Origin: Hydrogenophaga sp. | Lineage (GTDB): Bacteria > Pseudomonadota > Gammaproteobacteria > Burkholderiales > Burkholderiaceae_C | Length of the DNA: 64,000 bases | Direction of reading: 5' to 3' | Assembly: GCA_016790705.1 (NCBI GenBank) | Contig: JAEUOT010000059.1 | Location: 1 to 64,000 of the forward strand | Shown here: piece by piece, positions 56,338 to 62,977 of the stretch | How positions within the stretch are numbered: the stretch's first letter is position 1 | Layout: each line of letters starts with the position of its first letter | Position numbers and translations under genes: made by a program | The notes under the pieces: generated by a model | Databases searched by the model: none | What the model was told of the DNA's origin: nothing | What the model saw: only the letters and a program-made list of their open reading frames with translations

Positions 56338-56793
56338 ATGGCCCTGCCCGCCCTCTCCCTCTCGCTGCAGTTCGGTGACCTGAAAGACGCCGCCCGGCAT
56401 CGCGCCGCGCTGCCGCGCCACACCGTGATCCGCTGCATCCGCCACGCGCTGGACGCCGACGCCGAAATCACCGTGCGCATCGTCGACGCCGACGAAGGCC
56501 AGGCGCTCAACCGTGACTTCCGCAAGAAGGACTACGCCACCAATGTGCTGACCTTCGACTACGCGACCGAGCCGGTCGTAATGGCCGACCTGGTGCTGTG
56601 CGCGCCCGTCGTGGCCCGGGAAGCGAAGGAGCAGAAAAAGACCCTGGCCGCGCACTACGCGCACCTGCTGGTGCACGGCACCCTGCACGCCCAGGGCTGG
56701 GACCACGAGACCAGCGAAACCGACGCGGAAGAAATGGAAGCGCGCGAAATCGAGATCCTCGCTGGACTGGGGCTGAAGAACCCGTACCGCTGA
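56338..56793 (+). CDS. ybeY: rRNA maturation endoribonuclease YbeY
   Basis: A 151-residue metal-dependent RNase for 16S rRNA 3' processing and 70S quality control. ATG 56338 gives [20 protein letters not shown]. The zinc-binding motif H-G-x-L-H-x5-H appears as [20 protein letters not shown], with the conserved [16 protein letters not shown] upstream. It follows phoH by 22 bases. The usual next gene in many proteobacteria (corC) is not here; instead the CHAT cassette begins 81 bases later. Confidence 0.95.
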
Positions 56794-56810
56794 TACCCCC
56801 CAATGAGTGA

Positions 56811-56839
56811 TTGACGCCGCCAGCGCCCCGTCATACAAC
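56811..56839 (+). promoter_or_regulatory. Sigma-70-like promoter of the CHAT cassette
   Basis: TTGACG (56811-56816) and TACAAC (56834-56839) are spaced by exactly 17 bases, 35 bases before the CHAT start. A ribosome site GAGGAGG lies just before the ATG. The cassette can thus be transcribed independently of phoH-ybeY. No operator-like repeat is obvious. Confidence 0.55.
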
Positions 56840-56874
56840 CCGCGCAGGGCCCAACGCCCTGAGGAGGACGGCAG

Positions 56875-59751
56875 ATGGCGGGCATGGCGGCTGGCACACG
56901 CGAAACGGTCTTCGATCCGGGGCAACGGCTGCCGACCGCGACGCTGGCGCGTTTCGTGGCGCTGGCGGGGGCCATCCCCGATGCCGTCGAGCCGTTGCTG
57001 GCGGACGACGACGCCACGTCCCCCGACCTCGCTGCACTGGCCTCCACATGGTGGCGCATCGACCTGGATCAGGCGGTCGCGCTTGGCGCGCGGCTCGATG
57101 CGGTGCGGGACATCGACGGATTCGCTGTCCGGCTCGACCGGATCTGGGCGCAGGCGTGCGCCACGGGCCCGGTGCGCGCGGTGCTCACGGGCGGTCCGGC
57201 GGCGCTGGACGCTGTCTGGCTCGCCCGCTGGCTGGCGGATCAGGGTCCGCTGGAGACGGTGGTGTTCGACCATTCGCAGTGGCGCGCACCGCCGTTCGAC
57301 TGGCCGTTGCGGGTCGGCCTGCCGATGTCGGCCCAAGGACGGGGGCTCGCGCAGACGCTGCGGGCCGGCTGGTTCCGGGAGCTGTACGAACCGGTGGTGC
57401 TGCGTGGCGACGAGGTGATCGACCTCCTGCTGTATCCCGGCTCGCTGTCGCAGGCCCTGCGGTCGGCGCGCCGCAGCAGGCGGCGCCGCGCCGGCGCGGT
57501 GGTGGTGCTGGGCGCGTTCAACCACCCGGCCGGACTCGAAGCCTTGCGCGAGCTGGCGTGGCGCCTCGAAGCGGCTGCGGTGGTGGTGTGCGGGCTGGAG
57601 GCGTCCCATTGGCCGCAGTGGTTCTTCCAACTGGTCGCGGAGCTGTCGCACAACCTGCCGATCCCGCAGGCGGCGTTCGAGGCGCAGCGGCGCGCGGTCT
57701 TCACCGTCGAGCATCCCGAGCCACCGGTGGTGCTGTGCGACATGGACCACGCCGACCGCAGCCGGCCGATCGAGGTGGCCCGGCGCCTGGCCGACGCGCT
57801 GCGGCAGCAACCGGCAGACCACGCCGTGACCGCGCCGCCGGAGGTGGGGCCGGTGACGGATGCAACGCCCGAACGGAGCGCTGCAGGCGCCATCGCCGAC
57901 GCGCTGGAATCGGCCGCCGAACAATGGCCCTGGACCAGCGAAACCCAGGGCGCCTCCCTGCTGGTGCGGACCCGACACGCGCTGGAGCAACAACTGGGCG
58001 CCATCGAACTGAGGCGCGACCCGCGCTTCCATGCCGCGACGGCCCGCATGGAACCGCCAGAGGCCGAGACCGGCGCCGAGCCGCCCATCCCGGACACCCC
58101 GGCCGAACCGGCGCCACCACGGCACGTGAAGTTCGATCTCTGGCAGCTTGGCGCAACCGGGGCACCCGGCGAACCCGCGCCGTTGGCTCCCGACACCGAG
58201 CGCCGTCTGGAGGTGTTCATCGCCGAGGCAGCAGTGGCCGCCCAGGGCACGGCCGACCAGCCGCTGGACGAACGCCTGCTGCCCCCGAGCGCCGACGGGC
58301 ACACCTTGAGCATCGTGTACTGCCCCCTGTCGCCGATCAAAGCTGACAACGGCAAGCCACACATACCGCCGCCCGCCTCGGCCACGGTTCACCTGCCCCC
58401 GCGCGGAAGCAGCACCCGGGCGACGTTCGCGCTGCGATGCGGTGCCTCGGTGGCGGACTTCCGCGCGCGCCTGATCGTGCTGCATGCGCAGCGGGTGATC
58501 CAGTCGCTGCTGCTGCGGCCCGACGCCGGGGGCCTTCTCGGGCTGACGGTCGAGAACCGCTACGCTCCCGGCTTCGAGAGCCCGAGCGCCGACGCGCCCG
58601 CCGATCTGGCCTTCCTGATCAACGACAACGCGGACGGGGTGTCGGGACTGACCACGATGGCGCCCGACAAGGCCTCATTCCTCACACCCGACGGCCTCAA
58701 GGAATCGATCACGCAGATGCGCAAGATCCTCAACGCCGCGGTGCAGGCCGAGGCCGGCAGCACCGACCTCCGGCTGGACCGACCGGAGCTGCTGGATCTG
58801 ATGCGCCAGCTCGCCAACCACGGAGCCATGGTGGTGGAGGAACTGTCGATCCAGCATTCGCTGGCCCAGCTCGACGCGGCGCAGCGGGTTCAGGTCGTCG
58901 AGGCGGTGGACCAGGCCTACTTCCCGGTCGAGTTCCTGTACGCCGGTCCGGCGCCCGAGCCCGACGCGGCGCTCTGCCCGAACGCCCAGGCCGCACTGGC
59001 CGACGACAGCGGCGCGGTGCACGACCAGTGCCCGCACCGACACGACGAGGGCCACGTCTGCCCGGTCTCGTTCTGGGGCTTTCGCAAGTGCATCGAACGC
59101 CACGCCCCCAACGGCGAGGCCGCCACCGTGGTGTCGGTGCCGATGCCCGGACAGGAGCGCCTCGGACCCTTCTCCTCGGCCCTGCTGGCCGCAAGCGACC
59201 GGGCACACGACGAGATGGAAGGCCCGGCGGGTTTGCCGGCCGCCGTGGGCGCACGTCTGGCCGACGTGACCACGGTCACCTCCTGGGCCGACTGGAAGGC
59301 GCAGGTGATGGCGCGGCCCCGCGACCTGCTGCTGCTGATGCCGCACTCGGACAAGTCCAGCGTGTTCGTCGGCATGCCGTCGCTGGAGGTGTCCAAGGAC
59401 GAGCTGGCAGCCAGCAACCTGAGCGAAAAATACGTCCACACCGGCGAGGCCCACGGCCCGCTGGTGCTGCTGCTGGGCTGCAGCACCAGCTTCGCCGACC
59501 TGCCGTTCCTGAACTTCGTGCGCCGTTTCCACCTCAAGGGCGCTCCGGCGGTCGTCGGCACCCTGTCGGTGGTTCACGCGACGCAGGCCCACCGGGTGGC
59601 CGAACGGCTGCTCGAACTGGCCCTGTCACCCGATGCCGGGACCCTGCGGCTGGACGAAGCGCTGCTGCGGTTGCGCCGCGCCCTGCTGGCCGAGGGCAAC
59701 GGCGTCTCGTTCACCCTGATGGCCTACGGCCACAGCGCCTGGCGACTTTGA
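56875..59751 (+). CDS. CHAT domain (caspase-like) protease, 958 residues, first gene of cassette
   Basis: A large cytoplasmic protein with no signal or membrane segment. The C-terminal third is a CHAT caspase-like protease: PVEFLYAG (the family P-x-E-x-L motif), a Cys-rich insert (C701, C719, C729, C739), DLLLLMPHSDKSS with catalytic His824, and GPLVLLLGCSTSFADLPFLN with Cys869, then GAPAVVGTLSVVHATQAHRV. The first 300 residues contain a segment (GAVVVLGAFNHPAGLEALRE, then AAVVVCGLEASHW) that resembles the core of the same fold without the Cys, so a degenerate duplicate is possible (inference). CHAT proteases act in gasdermin, Craspase and metacaspase-type immunity. It is 9 bases ahead of the MBL gene. 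Confidence 0.85.
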   Translation: MAGMAAGTRETVFDPGQRLPTATLARFVALAGAIPDAVEPLLADDDATSPDLAALASTWWRIDLDQAVALGARLDAVRDIDGFAVRLDRIWAQACATGPVRAVLTGGPAALDAVWLARWLADQGPLETVVFDHSQWRAPPFDWPLRVGLPMSAQGRGLAQTLRAGWFRELYEPVVLRGDEVIDLLLYPGSLSQALRSARRSRRRRAGAVVVLGAFNHPAGLEALRELAWRLEAAAVVVCGLEASHWPQWFFQLVAELSHNLPIPQAAFEAQRRAVFTVEHPEPPVVLCDMDHADRSRPIEVARRLADALRQQPADHAVTAPPEVGPVTDATPERSAAGAIADALESAAEQWPWTSETQGASLLVRTRHALEQQLGAIELRRDPRFHAATARMEPPEAETGAEPPIPDTPAEPAPPRHVKFDLWQLGATGAPGEPAPLAPDTERRLEVFIAEAAVAAQGTADQPLDERLLPPSADGHTLSIVYCPLSPIKADNGKPHIPPPASATVHLPPRGSSTRATFALRCGASVADFRARLIVLHAQRVIQSLLLRPDAGGLLGLTVENRYAPGFESPSADAPADLAFLINDNADGVSGLTTMAPDKASFLTPDGLKESITQMRKILNAAVQAEAGSTDLRLDRPELLDLMRQLANHGAMVVEELSIQHSLAQLDAAQRVQVVEAVDQAYFPVEFLYAGPAPEPDAALCPNAQAALADDSGAVHDQCPHRHDEGHVCPVSFWGFRKCIERHAPNGEAATVVSVPMPGQERLGPFSSALLAASDRAHDEMEGPAGLPAAVGARLADVTTVTSWADWKAQVMARPRDLLLLMPHSDKSSVFVGMPSLEVSKDELAASNLSEKYVHTGEAHGPLVLLLGCSTSFADLPFLNFVRRFHLKGAPAVVGTLSVVHATQAHRVAERLLELALSPDAGTLRLDEALLRLRRALLAEGNGVSFTLMAYGHSAWRL

Positions 59752-59761
59752 GGAGGAATCC

Positions 59762-60832
59762 ATGTTCACCATCCAGATGCTCAACGCGGCCCACGGCGAT
59801 TGCCTGTGGATCGAGTACGGCGACGCGGCGAAACCCCACCGCATCCTGATCGACACCGGGCCCGGCGCCACCTACAAGGCCTCACTGGCCGACAAGGTGC
59901 AGGCGGTGGTCGACGCCGAGGGGCAATGCGTGTTCGAGCTGTTCGTGGTCACCCACATCGACGACGACCACATCGGCAGCTCGCTGCGTTTCCTCGACGA
60001 GCTGAATTTCGACACGGTGAAGATCAAGGACATCTGGTTCAACGGCTACTTCCACCTCTCCGACCTTGCGCCGGCCCAGCTCGGCGCAATGCAGGGCGAA
60101 CAACTGACCGAGCTGATCCAGCGCGGGCAATGGCCCTGGAACCGGCAATTCCACCGCAAGGCCGTGATGGTGCCGCGCGAAGGAGCGCTGCCCTGCCACG
60201 ACTTTGCCGGCATGCGGCTGACCCTGCTCTCGCCGACCTTCGAGAAGCTGCAGGATCTCAAGCCGGAGTGGGAAAAGACCATCCGTGAGGCCGGACTTGT
60301 GCCCGGAGAGGCCTTCCATGCCGAAGAGACCGTGTTGCCCCACGGCTTCCTCGGGGGCGATGTCGAAGATCTGGCAGCCTCCCGTTTCAAGGAAGACCAG
60401 ACCCACCCCAACGGCTCCAGCATCGCCTTCCTCGCCGAATTCGAGGGCAGGCGCGTGCTGTTCGGCGCCGACGCCCACCCCTCGGTGCTGCTGGAGAGTC
60501 TGCAGCGTGCACCGTTCCATGGCCAGCCGCAGACGCTGGACGCCTTCAAGCTCGCGCACCATGGCAGCACGCGCAACACCTCGCTGCCACTGCTCGAAGC
60601 CTTCCCCGCCACCCACTACCTGGTCTCGACCAACGGCGCCAAGTTCAAGCACCCGGACGAAGAGGCGATCGCGCGGGTGGTGGTGTCGGCTCGGGAGCGG
60701 TCGCCGGTGCTGCACTTCAACGTGGAGAGCGAGTTCAACAAGGTCTGGCGCAGCGCGTCCCGCCGCAGCGATTTCGGCTACCGATGCGAATACGGCACGC
60801 CGGAAGATGGCCTGCTGGTGACATTGGCCTGA
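59762..60832 (+). CDS. ComEC/Rec2-type metallo-beta-lactamase-fold hydrolase
   Basis: A 356-residue soluble protein: FTIQMLNAAHGDCLWIEYGD (the first strands of ComEC-type MBL domains), then VVTHIDDDHIGSSL (HxDDDH, with the second His replaced by Asp as in ComEC), VLFGADAHPSVLLESL (bridging Asp) and FKLAHHGSTRNTSLPL (late His). The metal site looks complete for this subfamily. It is soluble, without the ComEC membrane domain. Family members cut nucleic acids or phosphodiesters; nuclease activity is a reasonable guess. Ribosome site GAGGAGG overlaps the CHAT stop, so the two are translationally linked. The third gene starts 16 bases later. Confidence 0.86.
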   Translation: MFTIQMLNAAHGDCLWIEYGDAAKPHRILIDTGPGATYKASLADKVQAVVDAEGQCVFELFVVTHIDDDHIGSSLRFLDELNFDTVKIKDIWFNGYFHLSDLAPAQLGAMQGEQLTELIQRGQWPWNRQFHRKAVMVPREGALPCHDFAGMRLTLLSPTFEKLQDLKPEWEKTIREAGLVPGEAFHAEETVLPHGFLGGDVEDLAASRFKEDQTHPNGSSIAFLAEFEGRRVLFGADAHPSVLLESLQRAPFHGQPQTLDAFKLAHHGSTRNTSLPLLEAFPATHYLVSTNGAKFKHPDEEAIARVVVSARERSPVLHFNVESEFNKVWRSASRRSDFGYRCEYGTPEDGLLVTLA

Positions 60833-60848
60833 ACGCCGGGGAGCCGTG

Positions 60849-61934
60849 ATGAAGCGCATCGTGATCTGTTCGGACGGCACCTGGAACATCCGCGACCAGG
60901 TCGACAAGGTCTCGGGCAAGCGCCGCCCGACCAACGTCACCAAGCTGGCGCGCGGCGTGCTCGCCCGCGACCCGCATGGCGTCGATCAGGTGGTCGCCTA
61001 TTTCGACGGCGTCGGCACCGACGGTGGCCTGGACCGCTTCACCGGCGGCGCCTTCGGACGTGGCATGGAAGACAACGTGCGCGCGATCTACCGCTTCCTG
61101 ATCTACAACTACGTCGAAGGCGACGAGATCTACCTGTTCGGTTTCAGCCGTGGCGCCTTCACCGTGCGCACCCTGGTGGGCTTCATGCACAAGGTCGGTC
61201 TGGTGCGCAAGGGCGAGGACTACTTCGTGCCCGAGCTGTACGCGCTCTACGAAAGCCGCCAGGGACAGCATTCCGACGCCTGGGCACAGGCCTTCCGCAA
61301 GATCAGCCAACCCCGGCCGGCGCCGCCGGTCACCCTGCTCGGCGTCTGGGACACGGTGGGCGCGCTGGGGGCGCCGGGCCTGCTGGGCCATCTGTTCAAC
61401 GGCCGCAAGTACGAGTACCACGACGTCGGCCTGCACCCGGAGGTGCTGAACGCCTGTCACGCCATGGCGCTGGACGAGCGCCGCAAGCCCTTCAAGGTCA
61501 ATCTGTTCCACCGCCCCCCGGGATGGACCGGCGCGCTGGAACAGGCCTGGTTCGCCGGCGTGCACAGCGATGTCGGCGGCAGCTACCGGCCCGACGGCCT
61601 CGCCAACGAGGCGCTGCACTGGATGGTCGAGCACGCCGAACGCCTGGGCTTGGCCTTCGACCGCGACTACCTCGCGTTCTTCGAGCCGTGCTTCAACTCG
61701 ACGTTGCACGACTCCTCGTCGTGGTTCTACAAGCTCATCGGCGAGGTGGTGCGCCCGGTCGGTCGGCACCGGGACCACGGTGAGTGCCTGCACCGCTCGG
61801 TGCTCGACCGCATCGCGCACGCGCCCTGCGCCTATGCCCCACCGAATGTGGCCTCGCTCAAGAGCGCGTCGGCCTTGCCGGTCGTCGACACGGCCCGCAT
61901 CCCGCGCGGCACGCCCTGCGAGGCGACGGACTAG
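60849..61934 (+). CDS. DUF2235/Tle1-like alpha/beta-hydrolase (predicted phospholipase)
   Basis: A 361-residue protein starting at ATG 60849 (a GTG 3 bases before is possible). DUF2235 signatures: KRIVICSDGTWN, then VVAYFDGVGTDGGLDR, the nucleophile elbow LFGFSRGAFTVRTL with Ser100, LGVWDTVGALG, and AGVHSDVGGSYRPDGLANEA with Asp241. The later His is probably in HRDHGECLHRSVLDRIAH. Tle1 toxins of type VI secretion use this fold as phospholipases, but no VgrG, PAAR or immunity gene is adjacent. In this setting a lipase activated by the CHAT protease is plausible (inference). It ends by overlapping the convergent chorismatase gene by 4 bases. Confidence 0.87.
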   Translation: MKRIVICSDGTWNIRDQVDKVSGKRRPTNVTKLARGVLARDPHGVDQVVAYFDGVGTDGGLDRFTGGAFGRGMEDNVRAIYRFLIYNYVEGDEIYLFGFSRGAFTVRTLVGFMHKVGLVRKGEDYFVPELYALYESRQGQHSDAWAQAFRKISQPRPAPPVTLLGVWDTVGALGAPGLLGHLFNGRKYEYHDVGLHPEVLNACHAMALDERRKPFKVNLFHRPPGWTGALEQAWFAGVHSDVGGSYRPDGLANEALHWMVEHAERLGLAFDRDYLAFFEPCFNSTLHDSSSWFYKLIGEVVRPVGRHRDHGECLHRSVLDRIAHAPCAYAPPNVASLKSASALPVVDTARIPRGTPCEATD

Positions 61935-62938
61935 GCGGACAGCGTCCGCAGCGCCAGCCCCTCGACCTCGACCAGCAGGTCGCTGCGGCAGACATCGGCC
62001 TGCACGTACACCACCGGCGCACCGGCCACCCGCCGCTCCACCACCGAGCGCACGGCGTCGAGGTCAGCGGGGCGACGGACGTAGGCCCGATACCCCAGGT
62101 CGCCGAGCCCGAAGACCCCGCTGCGCGACTTCGCCGAGGCCTCGGCCAGCACGGCCGCGACGTTGTCCAGGCTCTCCGCCGTCTGCGCACGCACATCGCC
62201 GGCGTGCACCGTCTGGTGGCCCACGATGCTGGCGGTACCCGAAACAAACAGGATTTCCTGGCCCGGCGGGTACGCCAGCGCGGCGCGCGAGAAGGTCGGG
62301 CTGCGAGGCCCGTAGTGGCTCGGATAGAAAAAGGCGCTGACCTGGCGCGGGTTCTCGATCGTCACGGTCGGCGTCGAACTGGCCATGAAGGCGACCGTCA
62401 GCGGTCCGCTCGCCACCCCCAGCGCGCAGGCCGCCGGCACCCGGCCGATCACGCTGCGCGCACCATCTTCGAACGCATCGCCACGCCCCATGTTGAACTG
62501 GCGGTAGCGTTCCATGCCGTCGGTCTCGCCGTTGATGTCGGCCATGTAGTTCCACACCCGCCACAGGTGCGGCAGACCCTGTGCGTCGAGCAGGCGGAAG
62601 ACGCGCGCGTAGGCGTCGTAGGCGGCCTGGCGCAGGACGGTGTGGCCACCCTGCACCGTCACCGAGCCTTCGTCGATCTCGATCACGCCGAACAGCAGGT
62701 CCCCGCCGCGGCGCCAGGCGATGCCTTCGCTCTGTCCGGACGACAGCGGCTGCCCGCCGGGCAGCGCCCAGCACTCCTGCGACAGCGGCTGCGGCGCCAG
62801 CACCGGGGTCTGCAGGCACTGCAAGGGCCAGGGCGCCCGGGCCGCAGGCAGGTCGGCGCCGACCCACGCACCGCCCAGCACGGCGTGGCGGTCGGCGGAA
62901 AACGTCGGCGAACAGGACGTCAGGAGCGACAGGCTCAT
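61931..62938 (-). CDS. Chorismatase (Hyg5/FkbO/XanB2-type), makes hydroxybenzoate
   Basis: A 335-residue protein of the chorismatase family, a fold related to RidA/YjgF. The signature WNYMADINGETDGMERYRQF followed by NMGRGDAFEDG is the chorismate site motif; other blocks are YDAYARVFRLLDAQGL, ASSTPTVTIENPRQVSAFFY and FVSGTASIVGHQT. The C-terminal domain ends VVYVQADVCRSDLLVEVEGL. Family members cut chorismate to 3- or 4-hydroxybenzoate or trans-dihydroxycyclohexadiene-carboxylate with release of pyruvate. 3-/4-HBA feed aryl-polyene pigments or ubiquinone. The exact product is not readable from the sequence. The start is ATG 62938. It is convergent with the lipase gene. Confidence 0.88.
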   Translation of the reverse strand: MSLSLLTSCSPTFSADRHAVLGGAWVGADLPAARAPWPLQCLQTPVLAPQPLSQECWALPGGQPLSSGQSEGIAWRRGGDLLFGVIEIDEGSVTVQGGHTVLRQAAYDAYARVFRLLDAQGLPHLWRVWNYMADINGETDGMERYRQFNMGRGDAFEDGARSVIGRVPAACALGVASGPLTVAFMASSTPTVTIENPRQVSAFFYPSHYGPRSPTFSRAALAYPPGQEILFVSGTASIVGHQTVHAGDVRAQTAESLDNVAAVLAEASAKSRSGVFGLGDLGYRAYVRRPADLDAVRSVVERRVAGAPVVYVQADVCRSDLLVEVEGLALRTLSA

Positions 62939-62977
62939 CACGGACTCATCCAGACAGGAGAACAGGGGTTGGCGCGC

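What the first reader, a model, noticed from the sequence alone, without database searches (positions are those of the whole stretch)
56811..61934. Three-gene CHAT-protease / MBL-hydrolase / DUF2235-lipase cassette: candidate undescribed defence or cell-death system
Seen: a promoter-like -35/-10, a 958-residue protein with C-terminal CHAT fold and His824/Cys869, then (9-base gap, ribosome site GAGGAGG overlapping the stop) a ComEC-type MBL hydrolase with HxDDDH, then (16 bases) a DUF2235 hydrolase with GFSRG Ser100. Known: CHAT proteases activate gasdermins and other effectors, Tle1-type DUF2235 proteins are phospholipases that break membranes, and MBL-fold proteins occur beside proteases in AVAST-type systems. 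I do not know of this exact trio being characterised. Inference: the CHAT protease is a sensor/activator, the lipase a membrane effector, and the MBL protein a nuclease effector or a signal-processing factor.
Basis: partly seen in the sequence, partly recalled or inferred. Interest (0 to 1): 0.92.

Follow-up and report, generated by a model that had tools for sequence, protein, structure and literature searches.

The report
CHAT-protease, gated nuclease and lipase cassette
Three neighbouring genes look like a bacterial self-destruct switch against phages, in which a protease unlocks a dormant DNA-cutting enzyme next to a fat-cutting enzyme; it appears to be a new variant of a protease-nuclease defence described in 2025.

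Summary
The three genes are real and in the order described. They fill a clean ~5.14 kb insertion between ybeY and a chorismatase gene; three same-genus genomes show the empty site, and 0 of 35 same-genus genomes have the protease. By sequence family the MBL protein is a 'gated' pro-nuclease like those of AVAST-1, Hachiman, Lamassu and Canu. Its model is disordered over 95-143 and 176-220, as expected for two gates. Both gates carry Leu-Gly, as in 10 of 10 nucleases examined that are paired with this CHAT family. Expected mechanism: the CHAT protease (His824/Cys869) cuts both gates and frees a DNase. The protease resembles neither CanA nor CanB, so this is a relative of Canu, not a Canu. The third gene is a recurrent lipase slot: DUF2235 in two, patatin in four of seven close loci; related patatins also sit beside caspase and subtilase versions, none beside six trypsin versions. 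What triggers the lipase is unknown. Phage defence is inferred; nothing was tested at the bench. I judge it a new variant of a known kind.

The parts
56790..61930 (+). Inserted cassette (about 5.14 kb) between ybeY and a chorismatase gene; the three ORFs fill it
   Evidence: blastn against G026, G008 and G024 loci: the match stops at 56787/56789/56771 and resumes at 61957/61931/61960
56794..56874 (+). Leader with weak -35/-10-like pair (TTGACG N17 TACAAC) and GAGGAGG
   Evidence: sequence; consensus scan found no promoter
56875..59751 (+). CHAT-type (clan CD-like) cysteine protease, 958 aa; N-terminal 740 residues of unknown fold, possible sensor part
58975..59061 (+). Cys-rich segment C701...C719...C729-P (possible zinc site) before the protease domain
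   Evidence: all three Cys invariant in the 10 sequences; C719 is Ala in L072
59344..59346 (+). His824, predicted catalytic
   Evidence: invariant in 11 of 11 family members
59479..59481 (+). Cys869, predicted nucleophile
   Evidence: invariant in 11 of 11 family members
59762..60832 (+). ComEC-like MBL-fold protein, predicted gated pro-nuclease, 356 aa
   Evidence: PADLOC LmuA 3e-71, Avs1a 1e-45, RTasMBL 3e-41; fold match to ComEC MBL domain 9ic4; sequence match to ComEC 9vc6
59954..59971 (+). Metal motif H65-x-D-x-D-H70
   Evidence: sequence; conserved in alignments
60044..60190 (+). Gate 1 (residues 95-143), predicted disordered; L107-G108 at 60080-60085
   Evidence: pLDDT < 50; LG aligned in 10 of 10 examined nucleases of this CHAT family
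60287..60421 (+). Gate 2 (residues 176-220), predicted disordered; L197-G198 at 60350-60355
   Evidence: pLDDT < 50; LG present in 10 of 10
60846..61934 (+). DUF2235 / Tle1-like alpha/beta-hydrolase (putative phospholipase); GFSRG Ser100 at 61146-61148
   Evidence: Pfam PF09994 3e-76; weak match to solved Tle1-type proteins, 3e-4; its stop overlaps that of the chorismatase gene on the other strand

Best explanation
It is a gated-nuclease defence system of the Canu/Avs1a/HamM kind in which the activating protease is a large CHAT-type cysteine peptidase. Proposed order of events (inferred): the N-terminal part of the 958-aa protein senses infection directly or assembles with a sensor; the C-terminal CHAT domain (His824/Cys869) becomes active; it cuts the MBL proenzyme at Leu-Gly sites in two disordered loops that cover the metal site (L107-G108 and L197-G198); the released nuclease degrades DNA, so the infected cell dies or stops growing. 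The DUF2235 protein, probably made from the same operon, is a second effector that attacks the inner membrane from inside. Shown here: gene order, insertion, conservation of the dyad, two insertions predicted to be disordered, the shared LG motif, recurrent lipase linkage. Inferred: protease activity, cleavage, DNase and lipase activity, phage trigger, and whether the lipase too is switched on by the protease.
For: MBL family match to LmuA/Avs1a/RTasMBL models. Two low-confidence segments at 95-143 and 176-220 in a model whose fold matches ComEC. Gate-1 column: Ile in 4 of 6 trypsin-paired nucleases, [Leu/Phe/Tyr/Met]-Gly in 7 of 9 caspase-paired, Leu-Gly in 9 of 9 paired with this CHAT family, and in a tenth found later. 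LG also in gate 2 of the same ten, against 1 of 9 caspase-paired and 1 of 6 trypsin-paired gate-2 stretches (rough cutting). H824/C869 invariant. Protease gene directly upstream of the MBL gene in 7 of 7 close CHAT loci and in the 4 distant plasmid loci fetched. Published precedent: trypsin and caspase partners activate such nucleases (PMC12799240). Clean insertion. Lipase linkage: patatin within about 5 kb in 6 of 16 MBL loci from genome samples, against 0.011 expected per locus.
Against: The CHAT assignment by family model is weak (0.014, below cut-off). Two homologues match gingipain C25 instead in their C-terminal part, also below cut-off; six homologues scanned whole match neither family. 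The model of the whole protein was useless (pLDDT 32). No sequence similarity to CanA or CanB. The MBL model rests on two sequences (mean pLDDT 58). I did not survey the window for a defence island. No PADLOC model matches the window's protease (best BovA, 0.095) or its lipase. An LG dipeptide in gate 2 is not rare by chance (shuffle P 0.06-0.79 per sequence; the product 2e-5 treats related sequences as independent). The nuclease in L030, whose CHAT protein is unrelated by profile, has Arg-Ser at gate 1. One close locus (G304) and all four distant CHAT loci fetched have no patatin or DUF2235. The tree of the nucleases leaves the deep branches unresolved.
Confidence: 0.68

Rival explanations
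1. The lipase is the main effector and the MBL protein is a regulator, for example a phosphodiesterase that degrades a signal; the CHAT protease activates the lipase.
For: Lipase genes of two unrelated folds occupy the slot. Kaur 2020 reports that caspases of VMAP systems always have a neighbouring alpha/beta-hydrolase gene (PMC7159879, passages). Pce phosphorylcholine esterase is the top Foldseek hit of the MBL model, just above ComEC.
Against: The MBL gene is present in each of the 11 CHAT loci looked at, while patatin and DUF2235 are missing in 1 of 7 close and 4 of 4 distant ones; the MBL has the sequence family and the two insertions of tested pro-nucleases.
Confidence: 0.17
2. DUF2235 is an unrelated passenger or a T6SS-type toxin gene that landed downstream of a CHAT-MBL pair.
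For: Pfam names the family after T6SS Tle1; DUF2235 genes are common elsewhere (79 plasmid records; of the 60 listed, 2 are also among the 51 MBL-bearing records); three unlinked DUF2235 loci looked at have no MBL or caspase annotated beside them; the exact order with DUF2235 last is seen only here.
Against: DUF2235 also accompanies the Dokdonella CHAT-MBL locus (60% identity to the window's, against 34-44% to four others) and the Bradyrhizobium caspase locus; patatins fill the same slot; no TssC in the genome.
Confidence: 0.12
3. Not defence but a stress or developmental cell-death module, with no phage trigger.
For: I found no phage assay for this protease; no match in 50,697 phage records and no relative confirmed in one scan of viral contigs, so no sign of a phage-borne life.
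Against: Patchy distribution, clean insertion, plasmid-borne relatives, and the same nuclease family in known antiphage systems.
Confidence: 0.1

Closest known systems
Canu (CanABC) of Klebsiella aerogenes, Tuck et al. 2025 (PMC12799240; parts 1-3 of 6 of the text and search passages read)
   Same: Protease gene upstream of an MBL pro-nuclease with two disordered insertions that each hold a conserved glycine
   Different: CanA is a C14 caspase with an Ig-like domain and CanB a separate partner; here one 958-aa CHAT-type protein with no detectable similarity to CanA- or CanB-like proteins, and an added lipase gene
AVAST type 1 (Avs1abc), nuclease-protease Hachiman (HamMAB), trypsin-type Lamassu
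   Same: Same MBL family and, by inference, the same gate principle
   Different: Trypsin-like protease fused to a STAND, HamA or ABC-3C protein and placed downstream of the MBL gene; gate residue Ile in 4 of 6 aligned here rather than Leu-Gly
VMAP/MoxR-vWA ternary systems, Kaur et al. 2020 (PMC7159879; passages only)
   Same: A caspase-superfamily peptidase next to an alpha/beta-hydrolase gene
   Different: Several further components (vWA, MoxR, VMAP) not found beside the cassette; no MBL nuclease mentioned in the paper (0 occurrences of 'MBL' and 'lactamase')
Tle1 T6SS phospholipases (DUF2235)
   Same: Catalytic domain family PF09994
   Different: No TssC found in the genome, no immunity or VgrG gene among the four flanking proteins scanned; sits beside a protease gene

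Membership tests
Gated MBL pro-nuclease with partner protease (Tuck 2025, general kind) | MBL of the Avs1a/HamM/CanC family encoded next to a protease gene | tested here: met
   PADLOC LmuA/Avs1a/RTasMBL hits; CHAT gene 10 bases upstream
Gated MBL pro-nuclease with partner protease (Tuck 2025, general kind) | Two insertions predicted to be disordered | tested here: met
   pLDDT < 50 at 95-143 and 176-220; from a two-sequence alignment
Gated MBL pro-nuclease with partner protease (Tuck 2025, general kind) | The insertions block the active site | not tested
   placement in the model was not measured, and those segments are of low confidence
Gated MBL pro-nuclease with partner protease (Tuck 2025, general kind) | Protease cuts the insertions and this activates the DNase | not testable with these tools
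   needs purified proteins
Canu | Conserved glycine in both gates | tested here: met
   LG in both gates in 10 of 10 examined nucleases of this CHAT family
Canu | CanA: C14 caspase with C-terminal Ig-like fold | tested here: not met
   no C14 match; profile comparison with six CanA-like plasmid proteins, probability 0.1%; the Ig-like fold could not be judged (model useless)
Canu | CanB partner gene | tested here: not met
   no CanB-like ORF in the window; probability 0.5% against the CHAT protein
AVAST type 1 | Avs1a at NCBI's curated score, with Avs1b trypsin-STAND protein | tested here: not met
   223.6 bits against a cut-off of 420; no trypsin or STAND domain in the neighbour
Lamassu | LmuB SMC-like ATPase beside LmuA | tested here: not met
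   none among the four flanking proteins scanned
CHAT peptidase (PF12770) | Family score above cut-off and His/Cys dyad | tested here: inconclusive
   18.7 bits against a cut-off of 24; dyad invariant in 11 of 11
T6SS Tle1 effector | T6SS in the genome, immunity gene nearby | tested here: not met
   TssC (PF05943) 0 of 1, E. coli control positive, genome 85% complete; neighbours are the MBL gene and a chorismatase gene

The most novel reading that the evidence does not exclude
A two-warhead bacterial death switch: one CHAT protease releases both a DNA-degrading nuclease and a membrane-degrading lipase, and the lipase is an exchangeable part (Tle1-like or patatin) that moves among systems with unrelated proteases (CHAT, caspase, subtilase), a second proteolytically gated effector class of the sort Tuck et al. 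say may exist.
Probability: 0.25. Interest if true: 0.82.

Novelty: new variant of a known kind. Interest (0 to 1): 0.6.

Why it matters
Proteolytic activation of dormant effectors is a recent theme in bacterial immunity. This locus adds a protease class to it, gives a concrete cleavage-site prediction (Leu-Gly in both gates), and points to lipases as a recurrent companion effector. If the same protease controls DNA and membrane killing, it would parallel eukaryotic caspases, which act on both a nuclease inhibitor and gasdermins (recalled).

Tried and rejected
Tried without result: full-length CHAT model (pLDDT 32), not used for fold search. Two viral-contig scans confirmed no relative; no phage-record match for the CHAT protein; no near-identical plasmid copy of the cassette. 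A suspected second, inactive CHAT domain at residues 136-290 was not supported by Pfam or by comparison with the C-terminal domain and was dropped. A conserved LG-type cut site in the lipases was looked for by eye in the alignments and not found consistently: GLLG occurs in the two CHAT-linked DUF2235 proteins but not in the caspase-linked one, and not in all patatins. A nuclease tree did not settle whether CHAT pairing arose once: CHAT- and caspase-paired nucleases are interleaved with weak deep support.

Corrected on the way: one search counted lipases in 6 of 9 non-trypsin and 0 of 7 trypsin loci before all proteases were checked. After, two loci (G461 at a contig end, with a patatin; G062, no protease found, without) were left out, giving 5 of 8 against 0 of 6 (Fisher P 0.028; 0.049 with two same-genus loci as one; 7 of 19 against 0 of 10 with plasmid loci, P 0.032). 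These P values are modest; one of the six trypsin assignments (L040) is below Pfam's cut-off. The plasmid count treats L025 (alpha/beta-hydrolase of no clear lipase type) as no lipase and leaves out L043 (broken), L045 (split MBL frame, patatin 2.1 kb away), L048 (protease not determined) and L052. In G232 and G262 a second patatin of another subfamily also lies within about 5 kb, so the uniform chance rate is rough. Loci with weak partial CHAT matches (G062, G761, G733, G722) were not counted as relatives.

Limits: the supplement of Tuck et al. was not available, so CHAT partners or lipases may be shown there; the statement that they are not mentioned covers the main text only (0 occurrences of lipase, patatin, CHAT).

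Full report
What is there. Window 56875-61934 holds three tightly spaced + strand ORFs: a 958-aa protein, a 356-aa MBL-fold protein and a 361/362-aa DUF2235 protein. Pfam puts the third firmly in T6SS_Tle1-like_cat (3e-76) and the second in Lactamase_B (6e-7). It gives only a sub-threshold CHAT match (0.014) for the first, which improves to 0.0013 for the C-terminal 216 residues. The C-terminal parts of two homologues match Peptidase_C25 at 3e-4 and 2e-3 instead, also below cut-off; six homologues scanned whole match neither. His824 and Cys869 are invariant in ten aligned family members (20-80% identical to each other; 20-32% to the window's) and in an eleventh found later, so a clan CD-like His/Cys peptidase is the best reading.

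An insertion. The flanks are ybeY and, tail to tail, a chorismatase gene, then dtd (recalled from its sequence). Of 13 other same-genus ybeY loci fetched, five were aligned to the window. In three (G026, G008, G024) the match runs up to the end of ybeY and resumes at the end of the chorismatase gene, with 12 to about 165 bases between; in the other two it resumes at dtd. None of 35 same-genus genomes holds the CHAT protein. The genes at the two edges are ybeY and the chorismatase gene, and no repeat at both edges is among the 20 of 43 direct-repeat families shown. G+C content does not mark the cassette out.

The MBL protein is a gated pro-nuclease by family and predicted anatomy. It matches PADLOC LmuA (3e-71), Avs1a (1e-45) and RTasMBL (3e-41), and NCBIfam Avs1a below the curated cut-off. 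Its predicted structure, from two sequences only (mean pLDDT 58, pTM 0.67), matches Pce and the ComEC MBL domain and is of low confidence over 95-143 and 176-220. Tuck et al. 2025 (PMC12799240; parts 1-3 of 6 and passages read) describe two disordered insertions at the active site of HamM, Avs1a and CanC. Trypsin-like partners cut after conserved isoleucines (sites mapped by mass spectrometry in HamM, supported by mutation and western blot in Avs1a). In Canu a caspase complex activates CanC, both gates hold conserved glycines, and changing either predicted site removes defence.

Gate motif. In an alignment of 27 nucleases the gate-1 position holds Ile in 4 of 6 trypsin-paired proteins, [Leu/Phe/Tyr/Met]-Gly in 7 of 9 caspase-paired ones (Tyr-Ser in two), and Leu-Gly in 9 of 9 paired with this CHAT family; the other three are L035 (Ser-Ala), L041 (Ala-Ser) and L030 (Arg-Ser), the last beside a CHAT protein unrelated by profile. 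Gate 2 of the same nine also has Leu-Gly, against 1 of 9 caspase-paired and 1 of 6 trypsin-paired (gates cut out roughly). G876, found afterwards, has both. The truncated MBL of L018 was not examined. I read Leu-Gly as the cut-site signature of this CHAT family; relatedness of the proteins weakens any P value. I had no HamM or K. aerogenes sequence, so the match of columns to published cut sites is by conserved residue. A tree of the 27 keeps Avs-type and Lamassu-type nucleases as groups (0.995, 0.963) and interleaves CHAT- and caspase-paired ones, with weak deep support.

Distribution. The close CHAT family was found with strong scores in five other genomes: four in the order sample (G040, G232, G262, G304; 6 of 399 genomes including the window's own and a weak fragment) and G876 in the class sample (2 of 248 with the window's own), plus one Dokdonella MAG. 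The phylum sample of 398 gave only the window itself and three weak partial matches. Five plasmid records carry a distant form; I fetched four, and each has CHAT then MBL. Profile comparison joins close and distant forms (probability 100%) but not CanA- or CanB-like proteins.

The lipase slot. Among seven close CHAT-MBL loci (window, L004, G040, G232, G262, G304, G876), two have DUF2235 (window, Dokdonella; 60% identical), four a patatin directly upstream of the CHAT gene, one (G304) neither. In Dokdonella the DUF2235 gene lies 3.3 kb upstream with a trypsin-like and other genes between. None of four distant plasmid loci has either. Patatins of the same subfamily (30-69% identical to each other, 20-25% to a patatin elsewhere in L015) also sit beside caspase loci (L022, divergent; L036, convergent, 730 bases away), a subtilase-MBL pair in the order protease-MBL-patatin (L041) and an MBL gene at a contig end (L035). 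A DUF2235 gene precedes a CanA-CanB-MBL operon in Bradyrhizobium. Other caspase loci fetched have no patatin or DUF2235 (L024/L049, L025, L042, L044, L046, L047).

Numbers. Of 16 MBL loci other than the window from the order and phylum samples, 6 have a patatin within about 5 kb. The 15 genomes searched hold about 1.0 patatin gene per Mb, the linked ones included, or 0.011 per such stretch; two of the six loci also have a second, unrelated patatin nearby, so the chance rate is rough. By protease class: 5 of 8 non-trypsin, 0 of 6 trypsin, two undetermined (P 0.028, or 0.049 with one genus counted once). G876 came from a later, CHAT-based search and is not in these counts. Lipases are therefore linked to these loci, but the contrast between protease classes is only suggestive.

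Mechanism. By analogy with HamM, Avs1a and Canu: sensing by the large N-terminal part, CHAT activation, cutting of both gates, DNA degradation, death or arrest. The lipase would act on the inner membrane from inside. TssC was not found in the 85%-complete genome. PADLOC matches neither the window's lipase nor four of five patatins scanned; the fifth has a weak match to 'Effector/Phospholipase' models (8e-6). Whether the lipase is also cut is open: I found no consistent site.

Known or new. Searches of the open-access library (listings and abstract starts seen) showed no paper on CHAT-MBL-lipase loci; the main text of Tuck et al. contains none of the words lipase, patatin or CHAT, but says that related nucleases occur with other protease families. 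Kaur 2020 (passages) reports caspase/alpha-beta-hydrolase pairing in other systems. I file it as a new variant: it works like Canu by inference, and it is not a Canu by its protease and missing CanB.

Noticed in passing
L041 7613-12262 (G746): Subtilase (PF00082, 1e-38) - gated-type MBL - patatin operon: a further protease class with an MBL and a lipase in the same order as the window.
   Followed up: partly
L031 8930-14240 (G304): Gated-type MBL followed by one protein that fuses a CHAT domain, a STAND-like NTPase and a subtilase domain.
   Followed up: no
L042 3473-9174 (Bosea vestrisii plasmid): An 838-aa protein matching both CanA and CanB profiles (fused), an MBL and a second caspase protein, near TIR-domain genes.
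   Followed up: no
L030 8792-12375 (G284): MBL gene divergent from a small CHAT protein, a nucleoside deoxyribosyltransferase-like protein and a weak TIR/GAF protein.
   Followed up: no
L039 7747-10364 (G780): MBL beside a trypsin-HamA fusion, an example of nuclease-protease Hachiman.
   Followed up: no
L036 6472-9085 (G642): A second, different MBL gene next to the patatin, convergent with a CanA-CanB-CanC-like operon.
   Followed up: no
L004 1935-5354 (Dokdonella MAG): Trypsin-like protein and further genes lie between DUF2235 and CHAT, possibly a longer version of the system.
   Followed up: no
window 61931-62941: FkbO/Hyg5-like chorismatase gene on the - strand, present in some same-genus genomes and absent in others between ybeY and dtd.
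   Followed up: no
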